The position numbers and the translations under genes are program-made. A DNA stretch of 64,000 bases. Origin: Astropecten irregularis (taxonomy: Eukaryota; Echinodermata; Asteroidea; Paxillosida; Astropectinidae). The notes beneath the pieces were generated by a model that did no database searches, was not told the origin of the DNA, and was given only the letters and a program-made list of their open reading frames with translations. Position 1 is the stretch's first letter, and each line of letters starts with the position of its first letter. The DNA lies in assembly GCA_963971285.1 (NCBI GenBank), contig OZ020251.1, forward strand, positions 5,890,001 to 5,954,000, given 5' to 3'. Positions 3,471 through 63,599 of the stretch are shown in pieces.

Positions 3471-3668
3471 GACGCTGTAGCGCTCAGATATGATTTGGCA
3501 CACAACGTGATAGGTCCATAGGCGTATAGTCTGTGACGACGATGCTTGTATCTCGGTCTAACTATATTATCAGTATATTATATCTATATGAAGTATATTA
3601 TTCCGAGTTTTACAAATCAGCTTTTGTAATTACCTCTACTGCGTCTCTTACAAGTCATTGCTTGAACA

Positions 3669-11174: not shown

Positions 11175-11283
11175 GTATTCAATTAGATCTCCTTACTTTT
11201 CATTCGTCGCATTATTTAATACGAGACATAAACAAATCCAAACAATTGTTTCTATTTTTTTTGTCTGTCTCTTTTCTTTTCAG

Positions 11284-20392: not shown

Positions 20393-20626
20393 TTTGTTTG
20401 GGGTAATTCTGACTCAAGTCTCGTGTATGACGTTTTTGGTTTACACAGCAAGAATGGTTCCTGGATCCAGATTAACCTCGATGTAGATACAGTACTGTCG
20501 GGAATTACTCTGCAAGGTTATGTCCGTAATTCTATCAGCTACTACGTGACGAAGTACATGGTATCGTACACTACGATCTCTATCCCCGAGTTTCAACATG
20601 TGACATATGCCAACAGATCCATACAG
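20393..20626 (+). CDS. gene 2 exon: F5/8 type C domain, middle part
   Basis: From 20405 the sequence is almost the same as gene 1 from 10953, encoding the VYDVFGLHSKNGSWIQINL core. It ends CAG|gtatta, phase 0. An acceptor at 20391-20392 (aaacag) would open it in phase 0, again not matching the phase 2 donor before it. Just upstream, gene 2 has one extra base relative to gene 1. No terminal exon like 11284-11427 is visible between here and the satellite, so this copy may be incomplete. Confidence 0.55.
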
Positions 20627-41095: not shown

Positions 41096-41230
41096 AGCCT
41101 ACATTGTAGTTACTCTGTCCCTAGTATGTTATTAGACCCTAGTATATGGTCACCAAGACCCAAACATGGTTAATAGGGACACACATACTACGTTATAGTT
41201 ACTCTGTCCCTAGTATGTTTACCAGACCGT

Positions 41231-41310
41231 AGTATACGGTCACCAAGACCCAAACATGGTTAATAGGGGTGTCCCTATTAACCATGTTTGGGTCTTGGTG
41301 ACCATATACT
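41231..41310. repeat. hairpin junction 1 in the 90-bp satellite
   Basis: Two arms of 38 nt (ending TTAATAGGG and starting CCCTATTAA) with one mismatch are separated by four bases. The array is locally inverted here. Confidence 0.9.
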
Positions 41311-43870: not shown

Positions 43871-43952
43871 TAGTATATGGTCACCAAGACCCAAACATGG
43901 TTAATAGGGGTGTCCCTATTAACCATGTTTGGGTCTTGGTGACCATATACTA
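43871..43952. repeat. hairpin junction 2 in the 90-bp satellite
   Basis: It has the same fusion sequence as junction 1, with perfect arms of about 39 nt. The two junctions are 2,640 bp apart. Confidence 0.9.
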
Positions 43953-44608
43953 CATTATAGTTACTCTGACCCTAGTATGTTTACCAGACCCTAGTATAGG
44001 GTCACCAAGACCCAAACTTGGTTAATAGGGACACACATACTACGTTATAGTTACTCTGACCCTGGTATGTTTAGCAGACCCTAGTAAATGGTCACCAAGA
44101 CCTAAACATGGTTAATAGGGACACACATACTACGTTATAGTTACTCTGTCCCTAGTATGTTTAGCAGACCATAGTAAATGGTCACCAAGACCTAAACATG
44201 GTTAATAGGGACACACATACTACATTATAGTTACTCTGTCCCTAGTATGTTTACCAGACCCTAGTATATGGTCACCAAGACCCAAACTTGGTTAATAGGG
44301 ACACACATACTACATTATAGTTACTCTGACCCTAGTATGTTTAGCAGACCCTAGTAAATGGTCACCAAGACCCAAACTTGGTTAATAGGGACACACATTC
44401 TACGTTATAGTTACTCTGACCCTAGTATGTTTAGCAGACCCTAGTATATGGTCACCAAGACCTAAACATGGTTAATAGGGACACACATACTACATTATAG
44501 TTACTCTGACCCTAGTATGTTTAGCAGACCCTAGTATATGGTCACCAAGTCCCAAACATGGTGAGGAACTATTGAGCAACTACATTAAATGTGCTCTCGC
44601 TGGTATAA

Positions 44609-44614
44609 TTTATT
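44609..44614 (-). terminator. polyadenylation signal overlapping the stop codon
   Basis: AATAAA on the minus strand contains the TAA stop. The satellite begins about 50 bp further on, so the 3' UTR may be very short. Confidence 0.35.
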
Positions 44615-44723
44615 TTTCAGGATATTTCTTTTCCATCTCAATAAGCCACCTCATGTGGTCGTACACCTGTCTGGTTGAGTAAGAATTTCTCAGCCAGGGT
44701 ATTTCGTTGAGTAGATCGTCAAC
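44610..44723 (-). CDS. recombinase-like gene, exon 20 (terminal)
   Basis: The acceptor is gttcttacag and the exon runs in phase 0 to TAA at 44610-44612. It encodes the second half of the SANT-like module (EIPWLRNSY, STRQVYDHMRWL) and a lysine-rich end. Confidence 0.8.
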   Translation of the reverse strand, partial: VDDLLNEIPWLRNSYSTRQVYDHMRWLIEMEKKYPEK

Positions 44724-47700
44724 CTGTAAGAACAGAATATGGAAAAACCAGTACATTTTTTATTCTGACTAGTTTCATCATATTTTGACTTGTTTCTTGT
44801 ACAGTGCTTCATGTTTCAGATTTTAAAATTTCTGCAAAATAGGAAAGTTTTGCACAAAATTTAAAAAGAATGTTTTTAATATCCTTGATTGATCTGGAAT
44901 GTTTATGTGTTAAGCATTCCAGATTTAGACTGTTTGTAATTCCTAAATTCATTTGTTATTAGTTGTTACAATTCCAGGAAAATGTCAGAGCTTTTTTGAT
45001 ACAATCAATTTTGATACAATCTATTCGATATTTGTCCTGCATGAGTGTTAGGCCTAATTGTCTCAATTGCAGGAGTGCTTTTATATTTTATAATTGTTCG
45101 CTTACCAAATCCATCAGATTCTTCTTTTTCCCTGGCATGGTCCCATCTTTGGCCTTTAGGGCTTTGTATTTTTCCAGGAGGCAGTCATCCTGTTCGGTTG
45201 ACCACATCCTGGAAACTCGACCACCTCTTTTCTGCAGAGTTATGGAACATTCAAAAGTTACTAATTTAATAGGTATTTTAACATTTAATGAATTGATGCA
45301 GTGTACAGACAAACAATTATTAATTACCTGTTTTAATGTGGAATAGATGTCATAATATTGGTTTTTGCACTTTATGATGATGTGTCAATGAAATCAAACA
45401 GAAAAGCTTCTGAATGCTTACTTATCGTGCTGATGAAAATATGAAAGTTGGCCAGTGTTCTCCTTGACTCGTTAATTAGGCACAGAATTTGTGACATGAT
45501 ATGAAATATGTGCCATTTATTTTAAGGTTTGGGGGCTTAACTTGATTTGATGAATATGTATCAAGGATATGCATTAAATTTTATAGGACAAGTATACTGG
45601 CTGCAGTTTGTATCCGGTTACCCGGTTAACCGACCATTCAAAAGGGTACCCGGGTACATTTTCCCAGTTAGGTTAATCGAAAAGTATCTTTTTAATGGCC
45701 TCTTCTTTTTGAAACATAGACATTTCAAGAGTTCACAAAGAAAAAAATGTCAAGTCAGGGCCGGTGAGCACAAATTACCACGATCTTTTGAAAATTGGAC
45801 CAGCAGGCTTATGCAAAGCAAAGGCCAGACATTTTGCTATGTCTACCACTGCCAAATGTTGTGACAAAAGAATGTTGTCAACCAATTTCCTAAAAGACCA
45901 AAACTTACTATTTCTTTGTTATACGGGTAATCGTAATCGTAACCGAAAAATTGAAGGGTAACCGGTTACAAAATTATTCGTAGACTTACAGCCCTAAAGT
46001 ATACACATTTCTGGCAATACTGTTTTTACCTTTTTTTTCAAGACCACAGTTTCCTGACTTGAATCTTTGTCCTGGGAAAAAGATACAAAATATTCTAATT
46101 TAGACCTGAAGATAAGATTTACAAGAGATGCATAGTGGGGATTTGTCTTTGTTTTCCTTTACTCTAAAGTCATCCAAATCTCTAGACTTTGTGCACAAAT
46201 GAGGAAGCATTTTCCTATGTACATTGTTGTCTCCTTAAATTCATTACTGTTCCTCCAGGTTGGGGGTTAAGCATGCACATGTAGGGGTAACAACTCTGTC
46301 TTGTATAAACAAAGCATGTGACGGAAACATCAAACATCAACAGAAGAAACCAACAATATAATATAGTCTAATTGGTTCTTGATGTTGTTGTTCTATATAC
46401 TCAAACGTACAGATGGGGATCCGCACTGTGATCCACATGCATGTACATACAGACAACTCTGGAGCAAGGAAATCCTGTCAATATATTCCCCGAAAATGGG
46501 GGAACGCACTTTTTTCTGTACATCAACCAATGGGCAGTAAGTAAGAAAGTATTATTGTCTCTCCTACAATGTATCCCCAACATCACAGACAGACAGTGAA
46601 CATATTGACATACAGAAGGTTTGGTGTGTAGGTAGACAAATGAAAACACTAACTTACATTTCGCAGGCCACAGAAAGACATGCTTTGCATGTAGGTGTTC
46701 TGTAAGGTACAAATGTAAAATATAAATGAATTTTAAAATCATGATTCTTTCACCAAATGTCAATGTTAGGGATGGTTTTTCTTTATGACACGAAAGAATT
46801 ATGATTTGAGTTGCCATACATTAATTTGTTTGGATTCAAAGTACTTTTATACATTGAACTAATATGGCCGCATTTTAAACGTCACTAGGTCTAAGAAAAA
46901 AATCTTGTTATACTTGGAAAAGCCTTATGTTCTGTTATCAACAGACATAATCTCTAGTTTTATTGTGTATTTATACACAAAATGGTGAACAGAAGGTGTG
47001 TAACACTGAGTTGACAAACCCAAGTACTTATAAAAAAAAAGTTGAAAGTTGGAGCACTAGAAAAGCAATGTTGCTTGTATGATGGCTAGCAGTAAGACTT
47101 ACTAACATACCCTCAGCAGCCTTTTTATTAACAGATGCTGAGGCTTAAAACAATTGAAAGAAGTTAATTTCCAAGGAATGATTCATATTGAGGAGTTACA
47201 GTAATATATACTAAGAATCAAGTCAGAACACTGACTCACTCAGGTTCACTGGTCAGCCTGGTGTCAATCAATGTCAGGAAGTGATGAAAGTATGTGACAA
47301 CAAAATTGTTCTTGGAAATAAGGAGTAAACATTTCTTAGATGCTGTCTTCATGTGACAAAACAATTATAATAAGGAAATAAGGCTACAGGTCAAAATTGT
47401 ATTACTACTTATGTGGATGGTTATCAGTTACATGTAGGCCCTATAAGGCAAAAAATGGATTTTTATAATTTCATTGAATAGTACAAATAATACAGAGGAC
47501 ATGGCTTTCCTCAACTGAGTTGCAGTTGTGAAGAGTGGAAGCTCACGAGCAAACGAAAGAAGAAGAAGAAGAAGAATCAGTCCAGAATGTAAAATTAATG
47601 AACTGCCAGATAAGAAAAATGAACTGAAATGAATAAAATAATTAACTGTCTGTATCACGATAATGAAACGTACCTCTGATGTCTGTTTTGAAATCCTGCT

Positions 47701-50700
47701 TGGTCCAGGTATGTCCTGCATTGAAACATGTTAACATTTGTAACCTTGAACAATATTTTTTTTAAGATACGTCGATTTTGTGAATACATGTAGTATATAT
47801 TTATTTATTTATTTATTTATAAAATTAAATAAGATTATGTAAACTATAATATTTGTGTAGGTGTAATGAGGAATTTTACTCACTTCAGGGTTTTCTTCCG
47901 GTATCCATGGAATCCTTTTAGGACTCATCGCCGGTGGTTCATATGTCTATTACAAAAGATATGCATCATCATCAGTATTACCTAATGACATTGAATGGTG
48001 CCATATACCATGTATACTATAGAAAACTTGTGTCCAGTTTTATATCAAGTGCGTATGGGGTCGCCATTCTACGTCTGATCTTTTTGCTTGATAAGTTATA
48101 ATTCCCAGTATATTACATTATATGTCAATGTTATAGTATACAAATATCACATGGTTTGAAGGTGAAAGTCGCTTCTAGCTCCCGAGGTGTTGGAAGTTAT
48201 AGTTCCAAAATATAGTTCCAGAGGCGAACTAGTTTGTCAACTTCCAACACTGAGGGAAGCTAGAATCGACTGTCCACCCGAAATAAACCATGTGATATTT
48301 GTTTTACAATATCTCATAGATATTCACAATTTCGTTGAGATCAGTATCAGTGAATGCTTCAAAATGTTCGTGTTCGTGAGCCGTCATTAACCTCATGTAG
48401 GTCGAAGCTCACGCACGCGCACTGCAAACTTTTCCTTGGATGCGCAGTGAGATGTTACATGTGTAGCAGCGTCTTCGGACATTTCCCGGCTAACTTGCTG
48501 GTAATCAGCAAATATATCCACTTGCATGTGATGGTGAATTTACCAATTGGGATTCGGCTATAGATCATGAATATTTATGAGGTATAGTAATATAGTATAG
48601 TAATATACAATATGACTGTTTACCTCAAGATCTTGCTCATGTTTGATGGCTGATCGTCTTGCCTCTGCCTGACATTGGAAAGAAAGACATTCTTTTATAT
48701 TCAAGCTAAGCTTGACCCATCATCAATCCGAATTAAACTATCCATATGAACAATACCTGTTTCAAATGTAATTGGCTGTGCTTTTAAACATGTCTTACAG
48801 GCACACTTCATTATTTTGTCTTCCAGCACACATATTTGCAGAATAAATCATTTCACTGCAGGGGCGGATCCAGGGGGGGGGGGGCTTTAGGGGAGAGAGG
48901 ATGGAGAAAGACTCAAAAAGAGAAGATAAAGAGGGGGAGACAAAATTAGCTAGCTTTGATCGCCCCGAAATGCATTCGTCGCTATTGAATTGGCGCATTT
49001 TTGTTGTACGCCCCCCTTTTGGAAAATCCTGGATCCACTCCTGCACTGTGTGCCCTACTTTGGTGCAAGATCCTCGTCATCATTGTGTTAAGTGACTTAC
49101 CGAAAACAAGAGTTTTTGTATGGCATTTGTCGATCTAACTGCCTCCATGGGCTTCTGCTGTGCAGTATAATATTTTAGCTGCGTGCTCTCATTATGCGCC
49201 ATGTGCCTGACCACTCTTGTTCTCTCTCCTTGGTCATGATCTGCTCCTTGATTCTGTAATATAAATTCAATTCAGCAGTGTCAGGTGTAATGTGTTTTTG
49301 CATGTTGGTAGCCTAAAAGGCAGTTATAAAGCCACACATAGTTTGATCAATAAAGCACATATTAAATACTGTGCAGTATTAGTACACTAGTAAACGTTAA
49401 GTTGTCCACTAAGCTGAACAAAACTACAGGTAAATTTTTGTGGGGTGAGGGGTCTCCCCAGATGGCAGTAGGGATTGAACAAATAAAACTACTCAAGACT
49501 GAATGTTTAAACCTCTTTCTAAGAGTTTGTGCTTATTTATTTTCCAGATGGTCAACGTAATTGTGTTTTTGCATAAATTTTGCATGCATGCATGTATCAG
49601 ACATTCGTATGGAGTGGCACAGATTACAAGCGGGTGATACTCAAGACTACTGTAGGTGCAGGTCTGTCAGTTCCAATCTTATGTTACAAGATGTAAACAA
49701 AGAAAAACTGAATGTGTTTTACAGCTCATGTTTTAACAACTTACTTGTGTTGCCACGGTTTTCCTGATTGTGTTCGCGTTGAACTTGCCAGGCAGTTTGA
49801 GGCTGTCCCACATGCTGATTTTAGAGTTGAAAGGAGATAATTTATAACTCTTTGAAAGGACTGCTTAGGTCACAAGCAACAGTAGTGAGTATTCTTTTCA
49901 TGTAAGAAAAGTATTTTGACACTTTCCCATTCTCTTTAATTTCAATACATTTTTTCAGTCTGATGTAAATAATGCACATCATTATGATGACAAACGTTCC
50001 TTGCTTATTTGCAGCGTGGTTCTTGTGATTGGCTCAACCAAAATATGATGACAACAGGAACCAAACAAGGTACCATACATTAATACAAGAAAATATTTTG
50101 TGTATTTCACTTGCTGTCATACAAGGTCTTGTCTTTCCTATTGTTCATGTACTTAAAGGCCTGCAGTGCATTTAGTTTTAAGTCCACGATTTGAACATGC
50201 ATACACAGGTTTTTATTAATTTATTCTTTGCCAAAAGGTATTTCCAAAAAGTACTTAATAGCACTCACCTCTGTAGTTCTTGGGCCATCCTTTGAATGGG
50301 CAAGCCATGGTTGGCTAAAAAAAGTGGGCTTTTCTCTTCAGAAATATCTGACAAGAGTTGTGGGGTGAGGGGTCTCCCCAGCTGACAGTAGGTTGTCATT
50401 AGATCCCAAATCAACTTTGGGATCGATACCAGCTGGGGACCATATGTCCCCTTTGTCTTATGGTCCATGACCTGCAAAATGGAATTTTAATTGTGTCAAA
50501 CCATCATTTTGTATTTTCCGAGCAGCTTAAAAATGCAAATAGGGAGGTATTAATTACAGGCACTTCACACTACATCTTTTATTGATTGCTGGTACTAATG
50601 AGCGAAAAAACTAAAACCACTCAAGACCAGAATGTATAAACCTCTTTCTAAGAGTTTGTGCTTATTTATTTTCCAGATATTATCTGCATAAGAGTCTCTA

Positions 50701-53700
50701 CTCAACCATTGCATCATGCCTGCTTTGTTATGCCTGCCTGCGGCCTACACACATGTAAAGCCTGGCCATATGACCTTTATTTGACTGGTGGCTGATAATA
50801 AGGTTGGAAGAAGCAACGCTAAAAAAAAAACCCCAAAAAGGGCTAAAGGGTTCAGTAAGGACTTACTGAAACAACATGGTTCTCATTCAGCTCATCATCA
50901 AGGACACTTTTTGCTGAGCAAAACTCCCCGAGAGTCATGTTGCGTATCACTCCAGCTCTGGGAGCCCCTTGCAAAAAGAGGAGTGACATGATGCCATTTC
51001 TAAGGTCTCGCACCTGGTTCCAGGGGAGCTTTACCCCCTTCTTGAGTGCATCTGTGAGCAAGAAGTTAATAATGAAGGTAAATAAATTTGCAAAACTCTT
51101 TCCAAAATAATACCAGTAATTCTGTATCTAGAAAAATACAAACACTGTTTTCAATCAGTTGACAAATTACAATTATTATTTATACATGTGCAATTCAGTT
51201 TTCAACTGCTAGACATGTTGTTAAAGTAAACCCTTTTTTAATTGAATTGAATTGATAATAAGAACCATCTGACGGTAAGTCTTGTTACATAAGTTGTTGT
51301 TGGTCAGCCATAATAAAATTTATTTTATCATTTTAATTGAATTATCCTTTTAACCTATTTTTTTTTAGTCTGACTTTGTTTCCTCAATATTTCACGTTGC
51401 CATGCATGTCCCTTTTAACACTCATCCATAGCAGCCCCTCGTCATGTCCTCAGAATATTCATGAATTGCTTTGTCATTTCCATTGAAATGCATTGAATGT
51501 GGGCATTGTCTTGAACAAGAAGTCCTGTGAACCTTTATTGTAAAAAAAAACCACTCATTGTGGTACATTCACCCCCTTGATTTGCTTTTGAAAAGAATTG
51601 CATTTTCAAGCTGACCACAATCTGTGATCGAGTTTTAATCATCTGGGCATGAACCGATTTAGAGTCTGCCTTGAATACGAACATTGCTCAACATTCCTAC
51701 TCACATGAATTTGGTTGATTTTAAGTTCTAAATATGGTTTAATGATATAACAAGAAAAGGGATAAATTCCTCAAATCTGATTGATTTATCTCTGGCATCA
51801 GATTCTTTTCATTTTAAACAAACTGTCCAGTAGATAATTGGAAGGATAAATATAAACCTGTAATATTTGTATTTGTGCGTAAGATGTGAATTTGTAGCTT
51901 ACCAGCAGTTGACTCTGCACGTTTTACCATTGCAGACCGGAATGTCAGTAGATCTTGCGGCTGCAGGAGGATGTCTACATTGGGGATGAACAGGTATTTG
52001 AAACACATCAAGAGTTTATCAATGAAGGTAAGCACCCTTTCAGTAAATTTGGTAAGGAACTGAAATTAACTTTTTGTTTGGGCTGGAGGTTCATTAATGA
52101 TAATAATAATAATGGACACACTTATACGGCACCAGTATCCACCATGCTTGATGCTCATGGCGCGCAATACACAAAATTACAATGCAAAAACACAACAGGA
52201 AATCATTAAGCATTAACAATAATAACAATACATGTACAAATTACAGTAGTGTAAGGTGAACAAATGGGTTTTCATGTTTTCATGGGTTTTAAATAAAGAG
52301 AGGCTTTGGTTCACAGGAATAACAGAGTCGGAGTACTCCATTTTGATATAACAGGTTAACACCACCACCTCATCTGCTAGATCTTGATATATGCTTAAAT
52401 GGGTAGGCATCTGGTAGGTCAGCAATTGTCGGGGGTTACAACCATGTTTTGCAGATGCCAATAACGTGTGTGCTTATGTTTTACAGGGTATGTAGAAATG
52501 TCTGGGAACTCCAGTGCGAAAGAAGAAAACAGTGTACAGATGGAGAGCAAAATGTCGAGAAGCGCTGCACACAGGTACAGTGTACATGAGGGTCTGCTTT
52601 TAAGAGTTACTAATGTTTATTTCAGTGAGCCGCACTTTTCATTCAGTAAATGATATAGGTTTCAATTTTGTGCTTTGCCTTTTGTACTTTACAGGATTGT
52701 AACATAAAGATATACTTACCATCTATCATGGCCCGTATCTCCTGCTCGTGAACTGCTACAGCTCTGCTCAGACTTTTGCAAAAGTCTTTGCAGCAAGCTG
52801 CAGCATCACTCACGAGCCGGAAACTTATCCCAAAACGTCGTCCAATACCTGGCGATCTTTCCAAGAACTGGCAGAGTTTGTTGATGCTTGCCAGGTATTG
52901 GACTTGCGTCTTGGGTGCCCTCTTTTGATTCTGCAAAGCTGCAAGGAGTCTGTAACATAAAGCATAACATTTTATAGGTTTTAGGTTGGTAACTCGGTTG
53001 AGATACAACTAAAACAACTTAAATGTCATCATGAGTGAGAGTATCATTTTTGATATAATCAGTTGTTGTATCATGATATACAGTTAAAAGCTAGAACATT
53101 TCATTAACAGATACAGTAAAAAGTGGTCACTGTCATGATGAATGGCCATACAAAATTTATGGATAGCATTTGTTTCTGCAAATTATTTATTACCCTTCAT
53201 TGGCGTAGATGAGCACTACGTTATGTGCTTTATGAGGTAATAAATAATTTGCATAATTATATCTTCTGATGAAAAAATCACTAATAACAAAGACCACTTG
53301 TTTGTTGTGTGTATCATGAAGAATTGTAGCACCAGAATCTTTAGACTTAAGCCCCTTTCATGGGGAAATTTGTGCATCCTATCTGAGTGTTTTTTTGTTT
53401 GATCCATTTAATCTTTTTCAGTTGAAAAAGCAGTCACAAGTTGAGTAATGCTGTGATGTAACCAGACCTTTGGGGCATTCCAGGTTTGAGGAGGAGGAGG
53501 GGGGATTCCAGCTGAAGCTTTTCAGCTGCCAGCTCCAGATGGCGACGATGCTGAATTGCCTGCCGCTTGGCGCCATCGCCGCTGCCAAACTTGCAGGCCA
53601 TGTGAGCCTGAAATAGCTCCATGATGTTCTCTGTGGGGGATAGCAAGTAAAGGTAATACGCAAAAACAGAAATAACAAAAAATAATGTTTTGGTAGGCAG

Positions 53701-56700
53701 AAGTATTTGAATCGTTTATTTTAAATTTGTACGGGCTGAGTATTTGTCTTTACTGGAGTTGCCTGTCACGTTGCTGCAGAAAGATTCGCTGAGTAATTCG
53801 GTAAATTACTAGGCCTATAATTCATGATGCGGAGGAATTTGCATGCTTAATTAGTGAATGTGATTTTATTGATGTCAATTGGAAAAGTTTGGGATTTTTG
53901 CAGGTATTTTGTTAATTGACATGATTTGACATACCGTTTACATCGTCCTCGATAAATGGGCCGGAGACATTCACTCCTATCGAAGCTTGGGTTTGTGGCC
54001 TTGGCTTCCTGTCTATTTTGGCCATCAGGTGACGAAAAGCCTCAGTTCCTCGCTAAATAGTAGTACATGTATAATATTTGCAAATATGTGAACAAAGGAG
54101 CCTACATAATACTAAAATCGATGTTTATATATAATGAAATTATTAATATAGGAAATGTAAAACTTACATCAATTTCATGTTTGTAGTAGAGATGTGTGTC
54201 CACACGCACCAATGATTTGTACGGGCAGCCGGGATATGGGCAGTCGGCGGTCTTGGGGGTCTTTTGGCCATGCTCCTTTTCGCCGCCAAATGGTCGTGGT
54301 TTACGAATTGGATTTCTACAAGTCATCACAAATAGAAGTAAGTGAGTGAACATAGTAATACAGTATAGCATGACAGACTCACAGTTAAAAACATAGTGAT
54401 CTATTTTCCCAGAAGCACGACTTTAAAAGCAATGGAGGATAGTTTACAGTGGCATGAGGAAAAACAGGCTAATTACCAGAGATGCCTGAAAATCAGGTTT
54501 TTAACCTGAATTTACTGACCTTTGAATAACCTCACTGAGTTATTCCTGTAAATATACTCTGTACAAATGTAAAAACATAATAAATTCCCTTTTAAAAAAG
54601 ATTTCTCTTCCCTCAAAATATAACTTTTAATGATGAAAGTGTGTCATGCGCACAATTAACATGCCACTTTACTACAAAACGTATCATGATCTTCAATTAT
54701 GATATGTATTTTTTGTTGAACTGTGAGTTATTCAGAAAGTGATCTTACCCAACTCTGGCGGTTTGTATCACTCCAATTCTTCTGACCTTGTCCCGCATGT
54801 TATGGGTCCTTATTAGGTGATGGCTTAGCCATGCTACTGATTTGTCACATAATGGGCAGGGCCGCTTAGTTCTATTACTCTGTAACAGAAAGTACAGAAA
54901 ACAGTGCTTAATTGTAAATTCAACAAGAACAAACACCTTTTATTTGCCTCACATGTGATCAGTTTGTATTGTCCACCATACTTCAATGTACCGGTAAACC
55001 TAAATTTGGTCTTTTCTTTAACAGTACAAAGCAAACCTGATATTGTCGGCATGCGGGTCATTGCATCGTGCAAAGAAGGTAAATATCCCTTTAGCTGTTC
55101 AGTGATTTTGTGCTATATTTCAGTGACTTAACAATGGTATGTGGATCGGTTTGCGGAAACAACAAGTAATAATCATTCGTACTTTCACACTTCTATATCT
55201 TTCGCACTTCTCGCAATTAGGTCACAACGTTTCGACTAGCCTGTTCTAGTCCTTATCCGGAGACCTGGAGACCTGATGAGGACTATAGAGCAGACTAGTT
55301 GAAAAGTTGAGACCTAATTGCAAGAAGTGCGAACGATATAGAAGTGCGAAAAAACGAGCGATTAGTACATGGTGTTTCCGCAAACTGATCCACATATCAA
55401 TTTTCACCATTCATTAAGCCTCAAATCAGCCCAGAGTAAATACTACATGTAGACCTACGTATATGTTAACTGTATGCATATAAACAAAAGTCCATTCAAA
55501 TCTGGCTTACTGGTTTCCACTTAGTGGCAGTGCTTCTCATCTGCAACCTCCTCTTGCTTGGTTTACACCAGTGGGGAAGTACTGCTTCATTTTCGTCCTC
55601 TACTGGAGTCTATTTGGAAACATAAGTCAATTATTGGTATTTAGTTTTTAAAGAAATGAGCCTTGCGCCTAGCAAGACCATATCGAAAGTTAAACGACAA
55701 GAGGACAAGAACATGCAAGTTAAGATACACATAAATGGATGAGAGGATCAGGACAAAGGGGGACAGCCTGACCGGGGAAACAGGGAAAGGGGTGTGGAGG
55801 TACGTAGGCATGATCAAAGGTGGACACCAACAGGAGTGGAGATACTAGCCAGTATTAGAGAACAGGGATGAACAGGGTAAATGGAAAATTAATGGGTATG
55901 CAGGGGGTGTATAAGGAAAATTGAGGAAGATGGATATATTAATCTGTGAGATCTTGGGTTTGCTCAGTCTGACTAACTGCAGGAGGGGTGGGGCAAAAAT
56001 GAAGTCCTTTGAAGACAAGTTTGTGCTCAATGCGAGTTATGGATGAGGTTGAAAGATAGTATTGGGAGGGGTTGTGGGTAATTGGGACTGATGCCCTGGT
56101 CATCTGAAAAGTCTAGCTGTGACACTGGTGCAAAGAACAGACATAATGTTTAGAAACACATAGTGTCAATTTCACTGCTTAGTTGCCTATACCTAGTATC
56201 AGAAAAGTGGGAACAATTGTTGGAAGTTCAATATCAAGATGTGCTATTTCATTATTGAGGCTCTGGAGAGAGTACTTTTTACTTTTTTAGGTCTGGTTCA
56301 GAACAATGGGATAAGGAACAAAAGAAACACTTTAACAGCTAAACAACAAGCAATTGGATGTTAAAAAAAAAAAACACTTTGTGAAAGTGAATTAATATCA
56401 TATGTAAGAAGTAATACATCCTAAATAGTGGAGACAATAGAGTTTGGAAACAATTGCTTTACCTCTTTGCCATCTTTCCCTCCATCTGCCTCTTCATCCG
56501 CCTCTTCATCTTCATCTTCATCTGCATCTACCTCTTTATCCACCTCTTCATCTTCATCTGCCTCTTCCTCTTCATCCACCTCTTCATCTTCATCTGCCTC
56601 TTCCTCTTCATCCACCTCTTCATCTTCATCTTCATCTTCTTCATCTTTGTCATAGTGATAATCATGATCATCATCTTCCTCTCCACTATTAACGGCCACC

Positions 56701-59700
56701 TCCTCATCTTCTGCTCTGTCTCCTTTTTCTTCGTCATCAGGGACCCCGCCCTCACTCAAGGCACTTAGAAGGTATGTGCACTGAAATTATTTGAACAAAA
56801 TGAGATAACTTTTAAATTTAGAATTGTAAAGAGTCAATGTGTTTTTTTTGTGACTTGAGTCGAGTCGAGTCATTCGATTCGGGTCGGATGTGAGTCACGT
56901 CTTTGACTCAAGTCATTTCAAGTATAATTAGAAATCTTCTAGTGCAGCCATACCTTTTATGGGTGATTGTAAAGTTTGCCCCCACCCTCTGTGTTTTTAC
57001 CACATGCTGGAACAACAGCGAATATGACACAGGGGTCCCAAACTCAACAATTGCTGTCATATGAAGGTATGATGGGTTATAGATGCATTAATTAAGCTCA
57101 AGGTTGGAATGATTTGTGTGAAAAAATTTGTACTGGATGCACACCTGCGCAAAAAACAAAATAGATGAAATTTACTTTCTATATTCAAGCTTTATAGTAA
57201 CATAGTTTTCACAACATTTATTTGCAGGAAAGAATAAATTGAACTTGATGTAGCCAGTGCTGAAGAACATCAAAGCCCTTTTGAACTCATATCCTGGCCC
57301 TGGTTGGATACTGCCTTCACTCCTGTGACTGTGACTACCATCCAGGATGTAGCATGTTCTGCCACATCTGTTAACTTAGTTCCCAACTTTTGTAATTGAT
57401 GGAGGATAGTAAAATTTTACTCAAACATGTTTTATAACTAAATGACGGGAACATATCCTGACAAAATTATTATGTTCTTAGTGAGTTTACTTTCGTTGTA
57501 ATCAGCTTTCCTTGTACCGTAATCATCCTATAAATCGAAATTTGCACACTTCCAAACCTGCATGTTGGAATTGAGGGGGGTACTACATGTTAGATAATCA
57601 CCTTATTTCAACATGCAAGTCTTTACAAGTGTCAGTTTTGAATATTGCATTGAAGATATACAGACGTTTCACAAAAGTGCGCCACCATGAGTTTGCAACG
57701 CGTTGGCCAATTTATTGACAAACTGCGCATCTTTCCACATCACATTGTGATTAGCCAACGTGTTGCAAAGTCATGGTGCCCCACCATACGAACCGTTCGC
57801 ACTGCACCTGCAAAGACTCAATTTTTTTTATTAATTAAGTAGGGGCTTAAATTTGGAAACAAGGGACAGGTGATAGGAGATTCAGCATTCTCATTTGGGT
57901 AGGCCTAAAGCTTGGCAACAAATGATTTAAATGGAGCATAAGGGTTTGCAAGGCCTCCAAAAAAAAGTATAGAGTTTGAGGCAGAAAATGGACTCAACAG
58001 TTTGTAAACAATGCAAACAGTCACCATGGGAAATCTTGGTTCATCAGATGCTGGGTTTTTCAAGCAAATCAAGATTTAGTGTTTTTTCCAAAGATCGTTC
58101 GTCCGAACTATTTTTGGAACTATTCTTCATGTTTTATATGAAAAATTGAGTCGGGTTTTCGCTATTTTATCGTGACTCAGATGTCCGATTGAGCTCAAAT
58201 TTTCACAGGTTTATTATTTCATATACATGTTTGATCAGACAAAGTATGAGTGCAGTCCTGTGACCTTTACCAATCATGTATTGTACCTTTAAGCAATTAG
58301 GGTTGTACCTTTAAGCAACCAGGGGCTTATTTCACCAACGTTTTGCGATCATTGCTAACACCCAAATCCATCCAAAATGGAGAATCGATGGCAGAGTAAC
58401 AATCTACTATTACGTGTGAAAGCAATGATCGCAAACTACGACTTAAGTGAAATTGCATGGCCTCAGGCATATCAGATTAATTAAAGGTATAATACATGAT
58501 TGGTAAAGGTTGCAGAACAGTACTCACTGGTTCATCAGATGCTGGGTTTTTCAAGCAAATCAAGATTTAGTGTTTTTTCCAAAGATCGTTCGTCCGAATT
58601 ATTTTTGGAACTATTCTTCATGTTTTATATGAAAAATTGAGTCGGGTTTTCGCTATTTTATCGTGACTCAGATGTCCGATTGAGCTCAAATTTTCACAGG
58701 TTTATTATTTCATATACATGTTTGATCAGACAAAGTATGAGTGCAGTCCTGTGACCTTTACCAATCATGTATTGTACCTTTAAGCAATTAGGGTTGTACC
58801 TTTAAGCAACCAGGGGCTTATTTCACCAACGTTTTGCGATCATTGCTAACACCCAAATCCATCCAAAATGGAGAATCGATGGCAGAGTAACAATCTACTA
58901 TTACGTGTGAAAGCAATGATCGCAAACTACGACTTAAGTGAAATTGCATGGCCTCAGGCATATCAGATTAATTAAAGGTATAATACTTGATTGGTAAAGG
59001 TTGCAGAACAGTACTCACTGGTTCATCAGATGCTGGGTTTTTCAAGCAAATCAAGATTTAGTGTTTTTTCCAAAGATCGTTCGTCCGAACTATTTTTGGA
59101 ACTATTCTTCATGTTTTATATGAAAAATTGAGTCGGGTTTTCGCTATTTTATCGTGACTCAGATGTCCGATTGAGCTCAAATTTTCACAGGTTTATTATT
59201 TCATATACATGTTTGATCAGACAAAGTATGAGTGCAGTCCTGTGACCTTTACCAATCATGTATTGTACCTTTAAGCAATTAGGGTTGTACCTTTAAGCAA
59301 CCAGGGGCTTATTTCACCAACGTTTTGCGATCATTGCTAACACCCAAATCCATCCAAAATGGAGAATCGATGGCAGAGTAACAATCTACTATTACGTGTG
59401 AAAGCAATGATCGCAAACTACGACTTAAGTGAAATTGCATGGCCTCAGGCATATCAGATTAATTAAAGGTATAATACATGATTGGTAAAGGTTGCAGAAC
59501 AGTACTCACTGGTTCATCAGATGCTGGGTTTTTCAAGCAAATCAAGATTTAGTGTTTTTTCCAAAGATCGTTCGTCCGAACTATTTTTGGAACTATTCTT
59601 CATGTTTTATATGAAAAATTGAGTCGGGTTTTCGCTATTTTATCGTGACTCAGATGTCCGATTGAGCTCAAATTTTCACAGGTTTATTATTTCATATACA

Positions 59701-60508
59701 TGTTTGATCAGACAAAGTATGAGTGCAGTCCTGTGACCTTTACCAATCATGTATTGTACCTTTAAGCAATTAGGGTTGTACCTTTAAGCAACCAGGGGCT
59801 TATTTCACCAACGTTTTGCGATCATTGCTAACACCCAAATCCATCCAAAATGGAGAATCGATGGCAGAGTAACAATCTACTATTACGTGTGAAAGCAATG
59901 ATCGCAAACTACGATCTGATCCAGTTTGTTCTTGAAAATAGCTGTGAAAAATTGAGCTTAATTGGACATCTGAGTCTGCTCCTGAGAAAATAGTGAAAAC
60001 CTGTCCCATTATTTAAAAAAAAAAGAATAGATTTCATCTTGCCCCGAGATCAAAACTCTTTTTGGTCTTTGTTTGACTTATTTCTGGATAAATACAGCAT
60101 TTCAGATGAAAAAATTTTAACTGTATTTTTCTACCAGCACCATCGTCATCTGTTTGGATATGTTACTAATCCTGTATTGTACATTTAAATCATCTAGGCC
60201 CGATGCATCAATTTTGATTTGTAAATATGTTGACATTCAGTTGTTGGAAATAAAATATACATCTGTCCTTTTCTTGCAAACTCGATCTGCTGAAATGGAT
60301 TTGGGTATCCTGTTTTGGGGTGTCTCTGGCAAAACATGTTAAAATTATTTTTTGTATGTGTTAGCCCTTGTTATAATGATCCAGTTGCATAAAAACTGCA
60401 TGAAAACTAAATAGGCCAATAGGCCTACATTGATTAAAACCATTTACATGAAGCATGTTGAGAAAAAATACAGTTAAGACCTACCTTTCTCTTTCTTCCC
60501 TTGGCCAT
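44610..60508 (-). CDS. zinc-finger/tyrosine-recombinase-like/SANT-like protein, 20 coding exons, 795 aa
   Basis: The model joins 20 exons, listed below, with GT-AG sites and matching phases throughout. The total is 2,388 nt from ATG to TAA with no internal stop. The order is a basic start (residues 1-8), acidic stretch (9-114), linker, zinc finger 1 (155-173), zinc finger 2 (216-237), helical core-binding-like region (about 300-434), tyrosine-recombinase-like fold (435-638), short linkers, and a SANT/Myb-like tail (717-795). Tyrosine recombinases cut and rejoin DNA through a tyrosine. Box I Arg466, Lys501, Arg581, His607 and Tyr615 or 616 are present, but the box II histidine is Asn578. The protein is probably nuclear. 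A host gene derived from a Crypton-like or related recombinase is likely, and activity is uncertain. Confidence 0.85.
45106..45231 (-). CDS. recombinase-like gene, exon 19 (SANT/Myb-like)
   Basis: It is 126 nt, phase 0 at both ends, bounded by aactctgcag and gtaagc. It encodes the first half of a SANT/Myb-type helical module (RMWSTEQDDCLLEKYKAL) followed by a lysine-rich stretch. Such modules bind DNA or histone tails. Confidence 0.8.
45583..45996. mobile_element. hAT-like non-autonomous element
   Basis: Inverted sequences around TTTGTATCCGGTTACCC and GGGTAACCGGTTACAAAA lie near the ends, and the right end reads TTACAGCCCTA, like hAT termini. I see no clear 8-bp target duplication. It lies in intron 18. 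Confidence 0.4.
46030..46071 (-). CDS. recombinase-like gene, exon 18 (42 nt)
   Basis: Phase 0 at both ends, with a ctttttcccag acceptor and an AAG|gtaaaa donor. It encodes a polar linker ending in lysines. Confidence 0.65.
46658..46699 (-). CDS. recombinase-like gene, exon 17 (42 nt)
   Basis: Phase 0 at both ends, with a taccttacag acceptor and a gtaagt donor. It encodes NTYMQSMSFCGLRN, with no recognised motif. Confidence 0.65.
47674..47715 (-). CDS. recombinase-like gene, exon 16 (42 nt)
   Basis: Phase 0 at both ends, with a tttcaatgcag acceptor and a gtacgt donor. It encodes a polar linker (DIPGPSRISKQTSE). Confidence 0.65.
47884..47946 (-). CDS. recombinase-like gene, exon 15 (63 nt)
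   Basis: Phase 0 at both ends, with a tttgtaatag acceptor and a gtgagt donor. It encodes a proline-rich linker with KRIPWIPEE. Confidence 0.7.
48141..48301. mobile_element. foldback MITE in intron 14
   Basis: CAAATATCACATGGTTT at the left pairs with its complement at the right. Inner arms around CTTCCAACAC and GTGTTGGAAG also pair. Confidence 0.7.
48624..48668 (-). CDS. recombinase-like gene, exon 14 (45 nt)
   Basis: Phase 0 at both ends, with a ccaatgtcag acceptor and a gtaaac donor. It encodes a charged helical linker (AEARRSAIKHEQDLE). Confidence 0.7.
48857..49045. mobile_element. GGATCC-ended foldback element in intron 13
   Basis: GCAGGGGCGGATCCAG at the left pairs with CTGGATCCACTCCTGC at the right, enclosing a G run and a C run. 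It lies very close to exon 13. Confidence 0.7.
49101..49253 (-). CDS. recombinase-like gene, exon 13 (catalytic His and Tyr)
   Basis: It is 153 nt, phase 0 at both ends. VVRHMAHNESTQLKYY corresponds to the last catalytic box of tyrosine recombinases, with His607 matching the Gly-His position and Tyr615 or Tyr616 as the candidate nucleophile. The Ser-Thr between them also matches. Confidence 0.8.
49437..49555. repeat. partial duplication of exon 11 and intron 10 sequence
   Basis: GTGGGGTGAGGGGTCTCCCC and about 15 more bases match exon 11 (50356-50400). The next stretch, CCTCTTTCTAAGAGTTTGTG onward, matches intron 10 (50640-50685). It is non-functional. Confidence 0.6.
49745..49814 (-). CDS. 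recombinase-like gene, exon 12 (box II)
   Basis: It is 70 nt, entering after a phase 2 donor and leaving in phase 0. NTIRKTVAT fits the box II pattern HxLRHTxAT, with Arg581 kept and the first histidine replaced by Asn578. Confidence 0.8.
50269..50471 (-). CDS. recombinase-like gene, exon 11 (catalytic Lys region)
   Basis: It is 203 nt with a ccattttgcag acceptor and a gtgagt donor. The start VMDHKTKGTYGP matches the beta-hairpin that carries the catalytic lysine (Lys501), followed by the helical segment before box II. Confidence 0.8.
50867..51051 (-). CDS. recombinase-like gene, exon 10 (box I Arg)
   Basis: It is 185 nt with a ttgctcacag acceptor and a gtaagt donor. LLFLQGAPRAGVIRNMTL fits box I of tyrosine recombinases, with Arg466 in the catalytic position. 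Confidence 0.8.
51903..51974 (-). CDS. recombinase-like gene, exon 9 (72 nt)
   Basis: Phase 1 at both ends, with a catccccaatgtag acceptor and a gtaagc donor. It encodes a helical segment (DLLTFRSAMVKRAES) linking the core-binding-like and catalytic parts. Confidence 0.75.
52098..52470 (-). mobile_element. LINE or SINE 3' end, minus orientation
   Basis: ATAATAATAATAATGGACAC with a CGGCACCAGTATCCACC stretch looks like the reversed 3' end of a retroposon with an ATT tail, as at 14640-14672. The body is not identified. It lies in intron 8. Confidence 0.4.
52720..52949 (-). CDS. recombinase-like gene, exon 8 (core-binding-like helices)
   Basis: It is 230 nt with a tatgttacag acceptor and a gtaagt donor. 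TQVQYLASINKLCQFLERSP is typical of the first helices of the SAM-like core-binding domain that precedes the catalytic fold. Confidence 0.75.
53468..53630 (-). CDS. recombinase-like gene, exon 7
   Basis: It is 163 nt with a ctatcccccacag acceptor and a weaker AG|gtctgg donor, phase 2. It encodes a predicted helix (MELFQAHMACKFG, then RHLELAAEKLQLES). The match of phases on both sides supports the weak donor. Confidence 0.7.
53935..54052 (-). CDS. recombinase-like gene, exon 6
   Basis: It is 118 nt with a tactatttag acceptor and a gtatgt donor. It encodes RGTEAFRHLMAKIDRKPRP and an acidic end. No domain is recognised. Confidence 0.75.
54168..54315 (-). CDS. recombinase-like gene, exon 5 (zinc finger 2)
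   Basis: It is 148 nt with a gatgacttgtag acceptor and a gtaagt donor. CPYPGCPYKS with VDTHLYYKH gives C-x4-C-x10-H-x4-H, a C2H2-type finger, preceded by a basic stretch (NPIRKPRP). Confidence 0.8.
54749..54879 (-). CDS. recombinase-like gene, exon 4 (zinc finger 1)
   Basis: It is 131 nt with a tttctgttacag acceptor and a gtaaga donor. CPLCDKSVAWLSHHLIRTH has C-x2-C and H-x4-H with a short spacer, a C2H2-type finger. A relic of this exon lies at 38668-38725. Confidence 0.8.
55138..55398. mobile_element. foldback MITE in intron 3
   Basis: TATGTGGATCGGTTTGCGGA at the left pairs with TTTGCGCAAAC-like complement at the right (GTTTCCGCAAACTGATCCAC). Inner arms around CTTCTATATC and GACCTAATTGC also pair. 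It occupies much of the intron between exons 3 and 4. Confidence 0.8.
55511..55609 (-). CDS. recombinase-like gene, exon 3
   Basis: It is 99 nt, phase 0 at both ends, with a gtttccaaatag acceptor and a gtaagc donor. It goes from acidic to basic (VEDENEAVLPHW, then KPSKRRLQMRS). No domain is recognised. Confidence 0.75.
56463..56780 (-). CDS. recombinase-like gene, exon 2 (acidic stretch)
   Basis: It is 318 nt, phase 0 at both ends, with an ataatttcag acceptor and a GAG|gtaaag donor. More than half of its 106 residues are Asp or Glu, arranged in repeats of the type DEDEEVDEEEEA. The DNA is a GAA/GAT-type imperfect repeat, so length may vary. Such stretches occur in nuclear and chromatin proteins. 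Plus-strand serine-rich frames here are shadows. Confidence 0.7.
56785..60484 (-). other. recombinase-like gene, intron 1
   Basis: This large first intron holds the 491-bp array (58038-59913), a related degraded foldback copy (59915-60190) and a TGAGTCGAGTC-type simple repeat near 56858. The segment 57955-58080 is shared with gene 2 intron 1. No other exon is seen. Confidence 0.6.
58038..59913. repeat. 491-bp tandem array, 3.8 nearly identical units
   Basis: GGTTCATCAGATGCTGGG begins at 58038, 58529, 59020 and 59511, exactly 491 bp apart. I noticed only a couple of base differences between units. Each unit contains one foldback element with TAAAGGTATAATACATGATT ends, and a second with TTATTTCACC and GCGATCATTGCT arms. 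Confidence 0.95.
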
Positions 60509-60519
60509 GGTTGCCTGAT
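60485..60519 (-). CDS. recombinase-like gene, exon 1 (start codon)
   Basis: After a likely acceptor (tttaaatgacag) come 11 untranslated bases and ATG at 60506-60508 in a good start context (CAACCATGG). Eight codons, MAKGRKRK, look like a nuclear localisation signal and end in phase 0 at gtaggt. The phase match to the acidic exon supports the choice. Confidence 0.65.
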
Positions 60520-60938
60520 CTGTCATTTAAAAACAAATCAGTTTATTAGACAGTCCTTAAAATAAGGGTGTTGTGTAGGCCTAGGCCCCCTATGTATTTT
60601 TGTGCATCAGAGCTTCAATTAAGGTTGATTTTTAATTGACTGAGAAATGTCTTGAAAGGATGGCTTAGCTTTTTGCATTGACTCTATTTAATGATTAGCT
60701 TGCCTTCTTTCAAATGTCTTGATCAGTAACAATAAAGTAATAAAAGGATGGACATAAACACTGCCTACTAAGTACTATAGTACTAAACCATCATGTAAAC
60801 ATGCATGGTGGAGTGCATCATTCATCAGTTATAAATGATGCAAACTTCCACGGAAAACGGTTTTCCGTTTTGTGTGATTTCTTTTGTTTCAAGCACAAGA
60901 CTAAACAAACCATGATAAGGAGTAGTACAAGTAATTAC

Positions 60939-61090
60939 CTCTACTTTGAAGAAAACTCCGAAAAATCTGCTGACGAAAACACAGAATAAAAGTGTTTTTT
61001 TCCTAGAATTATTTATTCACTTCGACGGTCGTCAATGGAAGGTGCCGCTCTCGCGTAACGGTCGAAAGGGCCAATGACATTGGTTGAAAG
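60939..61090 (-). promoter_or_regulatory. candidate 5' UTR exon and promoter
   Basis: A possible donor (GTAGAG|gtaatt) lies at 60938-60939 on the minus strand. Further upstream is a CpG-containing patch with two facing CCAAT boxes at 61071-61075 and 61079-61083. The transcription start is not determined. Confidence 0.35.
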
Positions 61091-61099
61091 TTTAAAAAC

Positions 61100-63599
61100 C
61101 GCATAGGGTAATTTGCATATAAGGATGTTCTATTATCGTGGGGGTGGAATAAAGCGTGATGGACAGCCTAGGAAGTATTTACAATCGGGTAAAAGTGGTA
61201 CACATTGATAACTTAATGATCTTGTTTGCAACTGAATCTCTTCTTAGAAATCAATCTTTTCCTCTGCAAATATTGTGTTAAAAAAGGAAACAAAGGCCCA
61301 TCTTTTTGTATTCTCAAATTTAGCAGGCCGATAAAGCCTTTATGATTAGGCCTACGTTCGTATGCCTATACATAGGCTAATAAAGTAATATTATGCTCGA
61401 TCGTATTTTGCATGTTTTGTTTACAAATATTGGGCTGTAATGTTTAGCAACCTTAAATTTAACTATTTTTGATAAACGTAGGCCTAGTTTGTTGTGAAGT
61501 ATAAAAGTAGGGCCTATGTGGGGGACAATTAACACTTCATAAAGACGTGATATTTCATCAGTCGGATTTGTACGTGTCCAAAAATTGTATTTATATTCTC
61601 AAGGAATCGTTGAGCATTAAGCAACATTTAAAGTTCACTATCTCCGTTGCTACCATAAAACCACCCACCCCACCCACTGACACTCCCCACCCCCACCCAT
61701 CTCAGCCCCTAGACTCGCCCTGACCTTGACATGACATGACATAGGTCATTAACACTGGGGATTTAAAAACCCTGGGGATGTTAACGGTTATTTAAATCCC
61801 CCTTTTGAACGATTTCAAAATGCAAAAGTATACGTTAGTCGCTGTGGGAATATGCGATTCACGAAGTGAACTGAATTGATAATCGTTCTACAGGTATTTG
61901 AATATTGCAACCTGAAAATTGTTAATCATTCAATGAGAAATATTAAAGCATTAATGAGAAAAAGCCGAGGAAAGTCGCTGATATTATAGTTCGTGAAGGG
62001 GTAGCTACGGAAACGACCTAAGGGTCAAGGTCACGTCCCCCTTTTTACAATAAAGCGCGCCCTCTATATGTTAATACTTGGATGCTATCCAATTTGGCAT
62101 TTACTGCAGACGTTACATAAAAGTCTTTTGTAGAGAACTAAAAACTTAATTGAACTTGCCCTCGTGTGTGATTTTTGCATTGGATGGGCACAGGGATGAA
62201 ATATGTCACTTTCCTTAAAAAAAAAAAGCATTTTTCCGGATAAAATTGCCAAAAACCGTCATGCGGGGGCAAGACGCAGGTGTCCCCCTTTTTACACAAA
62301 ATCCAAGTAAAAATGACTGGAAAAAAATTAAAATGAGTAAATTCGTAAGTGTTGCTGGGCTGGTTATATGTTTTAGAGCTTGCCTTTCTGCCTGTGAGGT
62401 TAAAAAAAATAACAAGGCACGGGAAAAAGAAATAGGGCACTTTTAGTTTTAAGAACCCCCCTTTTTACAACACATTTTGCCGAAATTAAGGTTTTTTAAT
62501 ACCATGTAGGAAATTTAATTTTGAACAGAAAAATAGTGGAAAATTTTATTATTTCTTCATGAATCGTAGAGATGAGATGTTATGTTACCTTTTAAAGGAG
62601 AAATCATCAAAATAGGCGGTATATTATAGGAGATATGACATTGTGAATCGGGCCGTTTTTTTCTTTTACGTCGACGGGCATCGACGGACAAGGCGGTCAC
62701 GGTTAGTACAAGCCCGAGAGGACCTTTACGTCAAGATTTTGACTGCTTCGGATCACCCAAGGATTTTTTGTTAGCATCATCCGAAGTGAATATATCATAC
62801 CTGTCATTCGTTAAAATATCTTAGGAAAAGCAAGAAATGGTCAAATGTTATCGATAACATCCCCACTTTTACACAAAACCCATCCAACCGTGCTTGTAAA
62901 AAGGGGGATTCTCGGAATAAACCGCTTTAACCAGGGGTCATCTTCATGTAGCGAAATGAAGCGGAAAACCCATTCGGATAGATTGCGTGTAGACTTCTTT
63001 ACCTTGAAATCGTCTTCCACAACGGAACGTGGTTCTACCGGGGGTGGGGTGGTTGGGGCGGGCTTGAGCCCCACAAATTGTGTCTAGTCCGCCCCCGCCC
63101 CACAAATTGTGTCTAGACCGCCCCCCCCCCCCCCCCCCCCCCTACAAAAAATTGACAATACTGGGTCGTTTCAGTTATTACGCGACAATTACATGAACAG
63201 GGTGTTGTGTAGGCTATAGGTGCATGCTTTTCTACTCCTAATAAGACATTGCAGAAGCCGGTGTTAGGAGAAAGGTCGAGCCCCCCTCCCCCCCCCCAAT
63301 AAATATGGTATCAAGTACTGCGCCTGGTCCTCCAGCATACGGGGTAAACTATGACATGTTAGGGTTAATTTTGTTTACAACGTATGACCTTTTAATTATG
63401 CATTTAATTAAGACACAGGGCAGCATGATATACAATAAAAAACGTGTTTATTTAATATTTATGGATTCACGAAATCTTTATTAAGAAAACCAGAAATTGT
63501 GTAGGTCAAAATAAATATTTTGATAAATAAAATAAACACTATTACTCAAACACGAGATGGATGTAAGTTATACATTTCCTGAATGAATAATTTCATTAT
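61100..63599. other. intergenic stretch with G/C tracts
   Basis: Five copies of the CCCCCTTTTTACA motif lie between 62030 and 62910. A short direct repeat of CCCACAAATTGTGTCTAG falls at 63071 and 63101, and a C run at about 63119-63142. No genes are seen. Confidence 0.5.

What the first reader, a model, noticed from the sequence alone, without database searches (positions are those of the whole stretch)
44610..60508. Intact host gene fusing zinc fingers, a tyrosine-recombinase-like fold and a SANT-like tail
Twenty coding exons can be joined with canonical GT-AG sites and every phase matching, giving 795 codons and no stop. Boxes I and II and the His/Tyr box of tyrosine recombinases are in the right order. 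The many introns argue for a long-resident host gene rather than an active transposon. A fusion with two zinc fingers, a large acidic domain and a SANT-like module would suit a sequence-specific chromatin or DNA-rearrangement factor. I do not know of a described function for this combination, but I cannot search.
Basis: partly seen in the sequence, partly recalled or inferred. Interest (0 to 1): 0.82.

Follow-up and report, generated by a model that had tools for sequence, protein, structure and literature searches.

The report
Animal gene with tyrosine-recombinase core
An animal genome carries a gene, split into about twenty pieces, for a protein that joins two zinc fingers to the core of a DNA-cutting-and-joining enzyme and still keeps most of that enzyme's active site; what it does is not known.

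Summary
On the minus strand, 60508-44610, 20 exons join with GT-AG sites and matching phases into 795 codons plus stop; exons 14-18 and the 8-codon exon 1 are least certain. Residues 286-640 match tyrosine recombinases (YR): against a 159-row XerD-family profile they beat 300 of 300 shuffles, 42 of 42 E. coli protein pieces and 300 of 300 chains of stop-free non-coding pieces. Five of six catalytic residues align (R466, K503, R581, H607, Y616); the sixth is His to N578. With half profiles the local score is inside (bacterial half) or barely above (viral half) the shuffle range; the global score stays beyond all shuffles. Two C2H2 patterns and an acidic exon are real. The SANT-like tail found no support. 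Crypton-derived DUF3504 genes lost the catalytic tyrosine and second arginine; this gene has both. Copy number, expression and orthologues could not be tested: the own-genome search did not complete, and no collection of animal sequences was at hand. Most likely: a host-resident, zinc-finger-guided, YR-fold DNA-binding protein, possibly still able to cut DNA.

The parts
60485..60508 (-). exon 1, MAKGRKRK (residues 1-8), start codon uncertain
   Evidence: donor AAG|gtaggt, phase 0
56463..56780 (-). exon 2, acidic region (residues 9-114), 12/18-bp coding repeats
   Evidence: 63 of the first 114 residues are D/E
55511..55609 (-). exon 3 (residues 115-147)
54749..54879 (-). exon 4, first C2H2-pattern finger CPLCDKSVAWLSHHLIRTH (155-173)
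54168..54315 (-). exon 5, second C2H2-pattern finger CPYPGCPYKSLVRVDTHLYYKH (216-237)
53935..54052 (-). exon 6 (residues 241-280)
53468..53630 (-). exon 7 (residues 280-334); the local YR alignment begins at residue 306; weak donor gtctgg
52720..52949 (-). exon 8 (334-411), presumed core-binding (SAM-like) region, all-helical model
   Evidence: Pfam Phage_int_SAM_4 E 0.036-0.19, below cut-off; AlphaFold2 mean pLDDT 78; no significant PDB fold match
51903..51974 (-). exon 9 (411-435)
50867..51051 (-). exon 10, box I; R466 (codon 50957-50959)
   Evidence: aligned to XerD R148
50269..50471 (-). exon 11, K503 (codon 50451-50453) in DHKTKG; K501 is the alternative
   Evidence: aligned to XerD K172
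49745..49814 (-). exon 12, box II NTIRKT; N578 in place of His, R581 (codon 49763-49765)
   Evidence: aligned to XerD H244 and R247
49101..49253 (-). exon 13, H607 (49194-49196) and nucleophile-position Y616 (49167-49169) in HMAHNESTQLKYY
   Evidence: aligned to XerD H270 and Y279 in global mode
48624..48668 (-). exon 14 (short, phase 0, uncertain)
47884..47946 (-). exon 15 (short, phase 0, uncertain)
47674..47715 (-). exon 16 (short, phase 0, uncertain)
46658..46699 (-). exon 17 (short, phase 0, uncertain)
46030..46071 (-). exon 18 (short, phase 0, uncertain)
45106..45231 (-). exon 19, first half of the C-terminal region (W..EQDDCLL)
   Evidence: no Pfam or PDB support for SANT
44610..44723 (-). 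exon 20, end of the protein, stop TAA 44610-44612

Best explanation
An intron-rich, host-resident gene encodes a DNA-binding protein built on a tyrosine-recombinase core. SHOWN: the exon chain as an open, phase-consistent, coding-like frame; YR homology; five of six catalytic residues; two C2H2 patterns; the acidic N-terminal part. INFERRED: host residence; nuclear location; the two fingers choose the DNA site; the core-binding and catalytic domains clamp the DNA as in Cre or XerD, probably as a multimer; the acidic part stays unfolded and contacts histones or partners. Because the nucleophile-position tyrosine and both arginines are kept (unlike in the DUF3504 genes), I think the active site was under selection until recently, so nicking and rejoining of DNA through a 3'-phosphotyrosine link is possible (about 0.4). 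Nothing here shows activity. Likely origin: capture of a mobile element's YR, with fingers and introns added. The confidence given covers the reading with or without chemistry, so it overlaps with two of the rivals.
For: Gene model and coding signal. YR homology: hhalign score 37.7, E 5.9e-5 for this one comparison, probability 65%; 0 of 300 shuffles (max 28.8); 0 of 42 E. coli protein pieces (max 26.9; five phage YRs score 27.3-104); 0 of 300 non-coding chains (max 23.5). Hexad R-K-N-R-H-Y; 5 of 6 identities, against at most 3 of 6 in 300 shuffles. Divergent phage YRs also vary at the N578 position: K in two, Y in one. DUF3504 genes lost the tyrosine and second arginine (PMC3212892, passages). 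19 introns; no inverted repeats of 28 nt or more enclose the gene.
Against: No YR family hit in Pfam, NCBIfam, PHROGs or PDB sequences beyond Phage_int_SAM_4 at E 0.036-0.19. The score depends on the profile: with the bacterial half (81 rows) or viral half (79 rows) the local score is 22.2 or 21.8, against shuffle maxima of 24.5 and 21.6; global scores (18.7, 22.1) still exceed all 150 shuffles (maxima 9.7, 12.1) with 4 or 5 hexad residues. The catalytic part alone (435-640) scores 24.7, P 9%. The lysine column is not aligned reliably: Cre and RXM show R there, and K501 lies beside K503. No joined-protein fold, expression, orthologue or copy number.
Confidence: 0.55

Rival explanations
1. The gene belongs to a multi-copy, intron-bearing YR transposon or recently amplified family, not a settled host gene; its YR moves the element.
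For: The retained active site is what a mobile recombinase needs. I recall, from no call, many unnamed fish and cnidarian proteins with fingers, a YR-like middle and a C-terminal helical domain; a lead only.
Against: 19 introns; no inverted repeats of 28 nt or more enclose the gene in 44563-61100 (shorter ones would be missed, and Cryptons may have none). In the window the joined protein finds itself and, weakly, a fragment of exon 11 in intron 12 (E 0.03) plus one chance-level hit (E 1.7). No dedicated search for reverse transcriptase was made.
Confidence: 0.25
2. A domesticated YR used only for DNA binding or protein contacts, with no chemistry left.
For: This is what the paper on DUF3504 genes proposes for domesticated YRs, while stating that no function of the domain had been reported (PMC3212892, section 16). 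His-II is replaced by N578 here.
Against: Tyrosine, both arginines, a lysine and histidine III are kept; natural phage YRs also differ at the N578 position.
Confidence: 0.35
3. A host enzyme that carries out programmed DNA rearrangement, excision or topology change at sites chosen by the fingers.
For: Retained catalytic set plus separate C2H2-pattern modules in an intron-rich gene.
Against: No target sites, rearranged loci or activity known; not testable here.
Confidence: 0.15
4. A decaying pseudogene, or a chain of exons that is not spliced as drawn.
For: No transcript; microexons 14-18 uncertain; an AATAAA overlaps the stop and a 90-bp satellite starts 48 bp beyond it.
Against: No stop in 795 codons, all phases match, coding periodicity, and the YR alignment crosses the junctions from exon 7 to 13.
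Confidence: 0.1

Closest known systems
XerD / phage integrase tyrosine recombinases (XerD, Cre, lambda Int)
   Same: Order of R, K, (H), R, H, Y; a region aligned to the core-binding domain before the catalytic part
   Different: 22-24% identity; no family hit by single-sequence HMMER; Asn in place of His-II; fused to fingers, acidic exon and a C-terminal region; 20 exons
Crypton-derived DUF3504 genes (ZMYM2/3/4, QRICH1, KCTD1, KIAA1958, WOC)
   Same: Animal genes thought to come from YRs; ZMYM genes also carry zinc fingers (PMC3212892, passages and section 16)
   Different: Those lost the catalytic tyrosine and second arginine; here both are kept; no DUF3504 hit
Crypton-derived YR in an intron of bird ATF7IP
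   Same: An animal YR kept under selection; the same paper says it may retain catalytic activity in some birds (PMC3212892, passage)
   Different: There an intact frame inside an intron of another gene, with no fusion transcript known; here the YR itself is split by introns and fused to fingers
Crypton, DIRS and Ngaro mobile elements
   Same: Eukaryotic YR with active-site residues kept (recalled and PMC3212892 passages)
   Different: 19 introns; no enclosing repeats found; no GCR1_C hit. Reverse transcriptase was not specifically searched for
ALOG proteins (DIRS-derived DNA-binding domain of plant regulators; PMC3537659, passages)
   Same: Host reuse of a YR's DNA-binding part
   Different: ALOG proteins of plants keep only the N-terminal domain; here the catalytic part is kept

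Membership tests
Tyrosine recombinase superfamily | Profile-level similarity beyond chance | tested here: met
   Score 37.7; 0 of 300 shuffles, 0 of 42 real protein pieces, 0 of 300 non-coding chains. With half profiles: local score inside (22.2 against 24.5) or barely above (21.8 against 21.6) the shuffle range, global score beyond 150 of 150 shuffles
Tyrosine recombinase superfamily | Catalytic R-K-H-R-H/W-Y set in order | tested here: inconclusive
   5 of 6 identical (R, K, R, H, Y); His-II is Asn; phage YRs with K or Y there exist
Tyrosine recombinase superfamily | Curated family match (Pfam Phage_integrase) | tested here: not met
   No hit; the test also missed the catalytic domain of the annotated phage YR Mae-JY04
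Tyrosine recombinase superfamily | YR fold | not testable with these tools
Tyrosine recombinase superfamily | Cleavage or strand exchange through Tyr | not testable with these tools
   needs the bench
DUF3504 / Crypton-derived host genes | DUF3504 profile match | tested here: not met
   not among the hits listed up to E 10, HMMER filters on; low power for a single divergent sequence
DUF3504 / Crypton-derived host genes | Loss of catalytic Tyr and second Arg (PMC3212892) | tested here: not met
   R581 and Y616 present
C2H2 zinc fingers | C-X2-4-C-X8-12-H-X3-5-H | tested here: met
   two matches; 2 of 5000 shuffles have two or more; loops of 8-9 and 10 are shorter than the classical 12 (recalled); Pfam hits below cut-off
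SANT/Myb | Profile or sequence match | tested here: not met
   no SANT/Myb hit in Pfam or PDB sequences; a fold could not be predicted because the region spans two exons
Active YR transposon | Multiple copies and defined ends | tested here: inconclusive
   no enclosing inverted repeats of 28 nt or more in 44563-61100; copy number not testable because the genome search did not complete (21 calls)

The most novel reading that the evidence does not exclude
An intron-rich animal host gene, with its own targeting fingers, that keeps a working tyrosine-recombinase active site: a host site-specific recombinase that cuts and rejoins the animal's own DNA in a programmed way, parallel to RAG but with tyrosine chemistry. 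(A Crypton YR in an intron of bird ATF7IP has been suggested to be possibly active, PMC3212892; no host YR with proven activity is known to me, from memory.)
Probability: 0.13. Interest if true: 0.92.

Novelty: new variant of a known kind. Interest (0 to 1): 0.58.

Why it matters
Domesticated tyrosine recombinases in animals are known, but the DUF3504 genes had lost the catalytic tyrosine and second arginine (PMC3212892). A multi-exon animal gene that keeps R, K, R, H and Y makes it possible to test whether animals have a tyrosine recombinase of their own, and if so what it rearranges.

Tried and rejected
Rfam on the whole window: nothing. Viral contigs with the joined YR part: 3 pattern matches, no relative. 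Phage records, tblastn: 9 records at E 0.2-0.8, of which 2 (two deposits of Sphingobium phage Lacusarx) are an annotated tyrosine recombinase. NCBIfam: nothing; PHROGs: one family of unknown function at E 0.12; PDB sequences: GpsB at E 0.87. Nop14 and BKRF4 Pfam hits come from the acidic stretch and lie below cut-off. SANT: not supported; SERBP1 (E 0.015) matches a short stretch only. Exon 8 fold: helical, best PDB match E 2.2; exon 11 fold: mean pLDDT 59, unusable. My first periodicity null was too easy, because exons are stop-free by choice; one search repeats it with stop-free pieces. Half profiles weaken the local YR score. Literature: in 9 answered searches no listed title or abstract start describes this architecture; the library is open-access only, and two papers were opened, by passages and one section.
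Full report
What was claimed. A 20-exon minus-strand gene at 44610-60508, 795 codons, with zinc fingers, a tyrosine-recombinase-like fold and a SANT-like tail.

The gene model. I located each coding piece and its splice sites and joined them (the end of exon 20 was mended). Twenty exons join with 19 GT-AG introns of 115-3704 nt, every phase matches, and the product is 795 codons ending in TAA at 44610-44612. Donors match the consensus at 6.9 of 9 positions on average, against 4.4 for the 827 GTs of the locus. With the acidic exon removed, codon-position composition gives chi-square 41.2; 2 of 2000 chains of stop-free non-coding pieces from the same window reach it (mean 13.0). The easier null gave 0 of 2000. 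Least certain are the 8-codon exon 1, the weak exon 7 donor and exons 14-18: these five are 42-63 nt and all phase 0, and 4 further candidates under the same thresholds lie in the same stretch, one of them a variant of exon 14.

The recombinase core. Standard libraries do not see it. Pfam gives only Phage_int_SAM_4 at residues 333-367 (E 0.036-0.19, below its cut-off); NCBIfam gives nothing, PHROGs and PDB sequences nothing relevant. I therefore built a profile of 159 XerD-family recombinases: XerD, 80 loci and 78 of the 80. XerD R148, H244, R247, H270 and Y279 are invariant in it and K172 is kept in 158 of 159; that these six are the catalytic residues is recalled. Against it, residues 286-640 score 37.7 (E 5.9e-5 for this one comparison, probability 65%, aligned from residue 306). 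Controls: 300 shuffles, mean 15.2, maximum 28.8; 42 pieces of E. coli proteins, maximum 26.9; 300 chains of stop-free non-coding pieces, maximum 23.5. Known recombinases on the same profile score 104 (lambda), 86 (Cre), 61 (Lacusarx), 46 (RXM) and 27 (Mae-JY04), so the protein sits among the divergent phage enzymes.

The active site. In the global alignment R466, K503, N578, R581, H607 and Y616 fall on XerD R148, K172, H244, R247, H270 and Y279; the local alignment fixes the first four and ends before H607 and Y616. Five of six are identical; 300 shuffles aligned in the same way reach at most three. The one change, His-II to Asn, is at a position where phage recombinases also vary: K in Lacusarx and Mae-JY04, Y in RXM. 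The lysine column is the least reliable: Cre and RXM show R there, and K501 lies two residues from K503.

Against this. With only the bacterial half of the profile (81 rows) the local score is 22.2, inside the shuffle range (maximum 24.5); with the viral half (79 rows) it is 21.8, barely above it (21.6). In global mode both remain beyond all 150 shuffles (18.7 against 9.7; 22.1 against 12.1), with four and five hexad residues in place against at most one and two in shuffles. The bacterial half alone also scores the phage enzymes Lacusarx, RXM and Mae-JY04 poorly. The catalytic part alone (435-640) scores only 24.7. Exon 8 alone models as helices (mean pLDDT 78) without a significant PDB match, and exon 11 alone is unusable. 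I hold YR homology at about 0.9.

Other modules. Two C2H2 patterns, CPLCDKSVAWLSHHLIRTH and CPYPGCPYKSLVRVDTHLYYKH; two or more such patterns occur in 2 of 5000 shuffles. Sixty-three of the first 114 residues are acidic, in a stretch coded by 12/18-bp tandem repeats. The C-terminal 80 residues have no Pfam or PDB support for SANT; the name should be dropped until a fold is at hand.

Surroundings. The window looks like animal DNA: frames with PAN domains (two, above Pfam's cut-off) and F5/8 type C domains (three, E 4e-6 to 6e-4 but below cut-off) suggest two tandem gene copies; there is a 131-bp satellite of 85.5 copies and a 90-bp satellite ending 48 bp beyond the stop codon. No inverted repeats of 28 nt or more enclose the gene within 44563-61100; those found lie in introns 1 and 3. 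Intron 12 holds a fragment of exon 11 and intron 10 (49438-49549 against 50358-50678, two pieces of 94% and 98% identity), a partial duplication.

What it is. Domesticated recombinases are known in animals: the DUF3504 genes derived from Cryptons. [quoted passage not shown] This gene keeps both, plus the first arginine, a lysine and histidine III. It is therefore not a DUF3504 gene by that feature, and Pfam shows no DUF3504 match, though that test has low power (it also misses the catalytic domain of an annotated phage recombinase). The same paper names one case nearer to this one: a Crypton YR in an intron of bird ATF7IP that may retain activity. From memory, and from no call, similar unnamed proteins with fingers, YR-like middle and helical tail occur in fish and cnidarian predictions; if so, this is one member of an undescribed animal family rather than a lone gene.

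How it works, most likely. The fingers choose the site, the YR core clamps it, the acidic part recruits or tolerates chromatin (inference). Retention of the nucleophile-position tyrosine and both arginines, when little else is recognisable, suggests selection for the chemistry until recently; I give about 0.4 that it can still form the covalent tyrosine-DNA link. Whether the gene serves the host or a mobile family turns on copy number and synteny, which I could not test: the genome search did not answer in 21 tries.

Literature. In nine answered full-text searches no listed title or abstract start describes this combination; the library is open-access only, and apart from PMC3212892 (passages, one section) and PMC3537659 (passages) I saw only listings.

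Noticed in passing
3666-4085, 10893-11427, 17254-17697, 20018-20638 (+ strand): Frames with PAN domains (E about 2e-6, above cut-off) and F5/8 type C domains (E 4e-6 to 6e-4, below cut-off), apparently two tandem copies of one lectin-like gene.
   Followed up: partly
24638-35841: 131-bp satellite, 85.5 copies, 90% matches.
   Followed up: no
41099-44562: 90-bp tandem array ending 48 bp beyond the gene's stop codon; an AATAAA overlaps the stop (44609-44614, minus strand), so the 3' UTR may be very short or made of satellite.
   Followed up: no
58037-59914: 491-bp unit repeated 3.8 times, 99% alike, in intron 1; units carry 51-nt inverted repeats like a MITE.
   Followed up: no
55130-55404: Foldback element with 119-nt arms, 84% complementary, 37-nt loop, in intron 3.
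   Followed up: no
49438-49549 against 50358-50678: Fragment of exon 11 and intron 10 copied into intron 12, two pieces at 94% and 98% identity: a partial internal duplication.
   Followed up: partly
6602-7046: TTTGG pentamer array, 89 copies, 76% matches.
   Followed up: no
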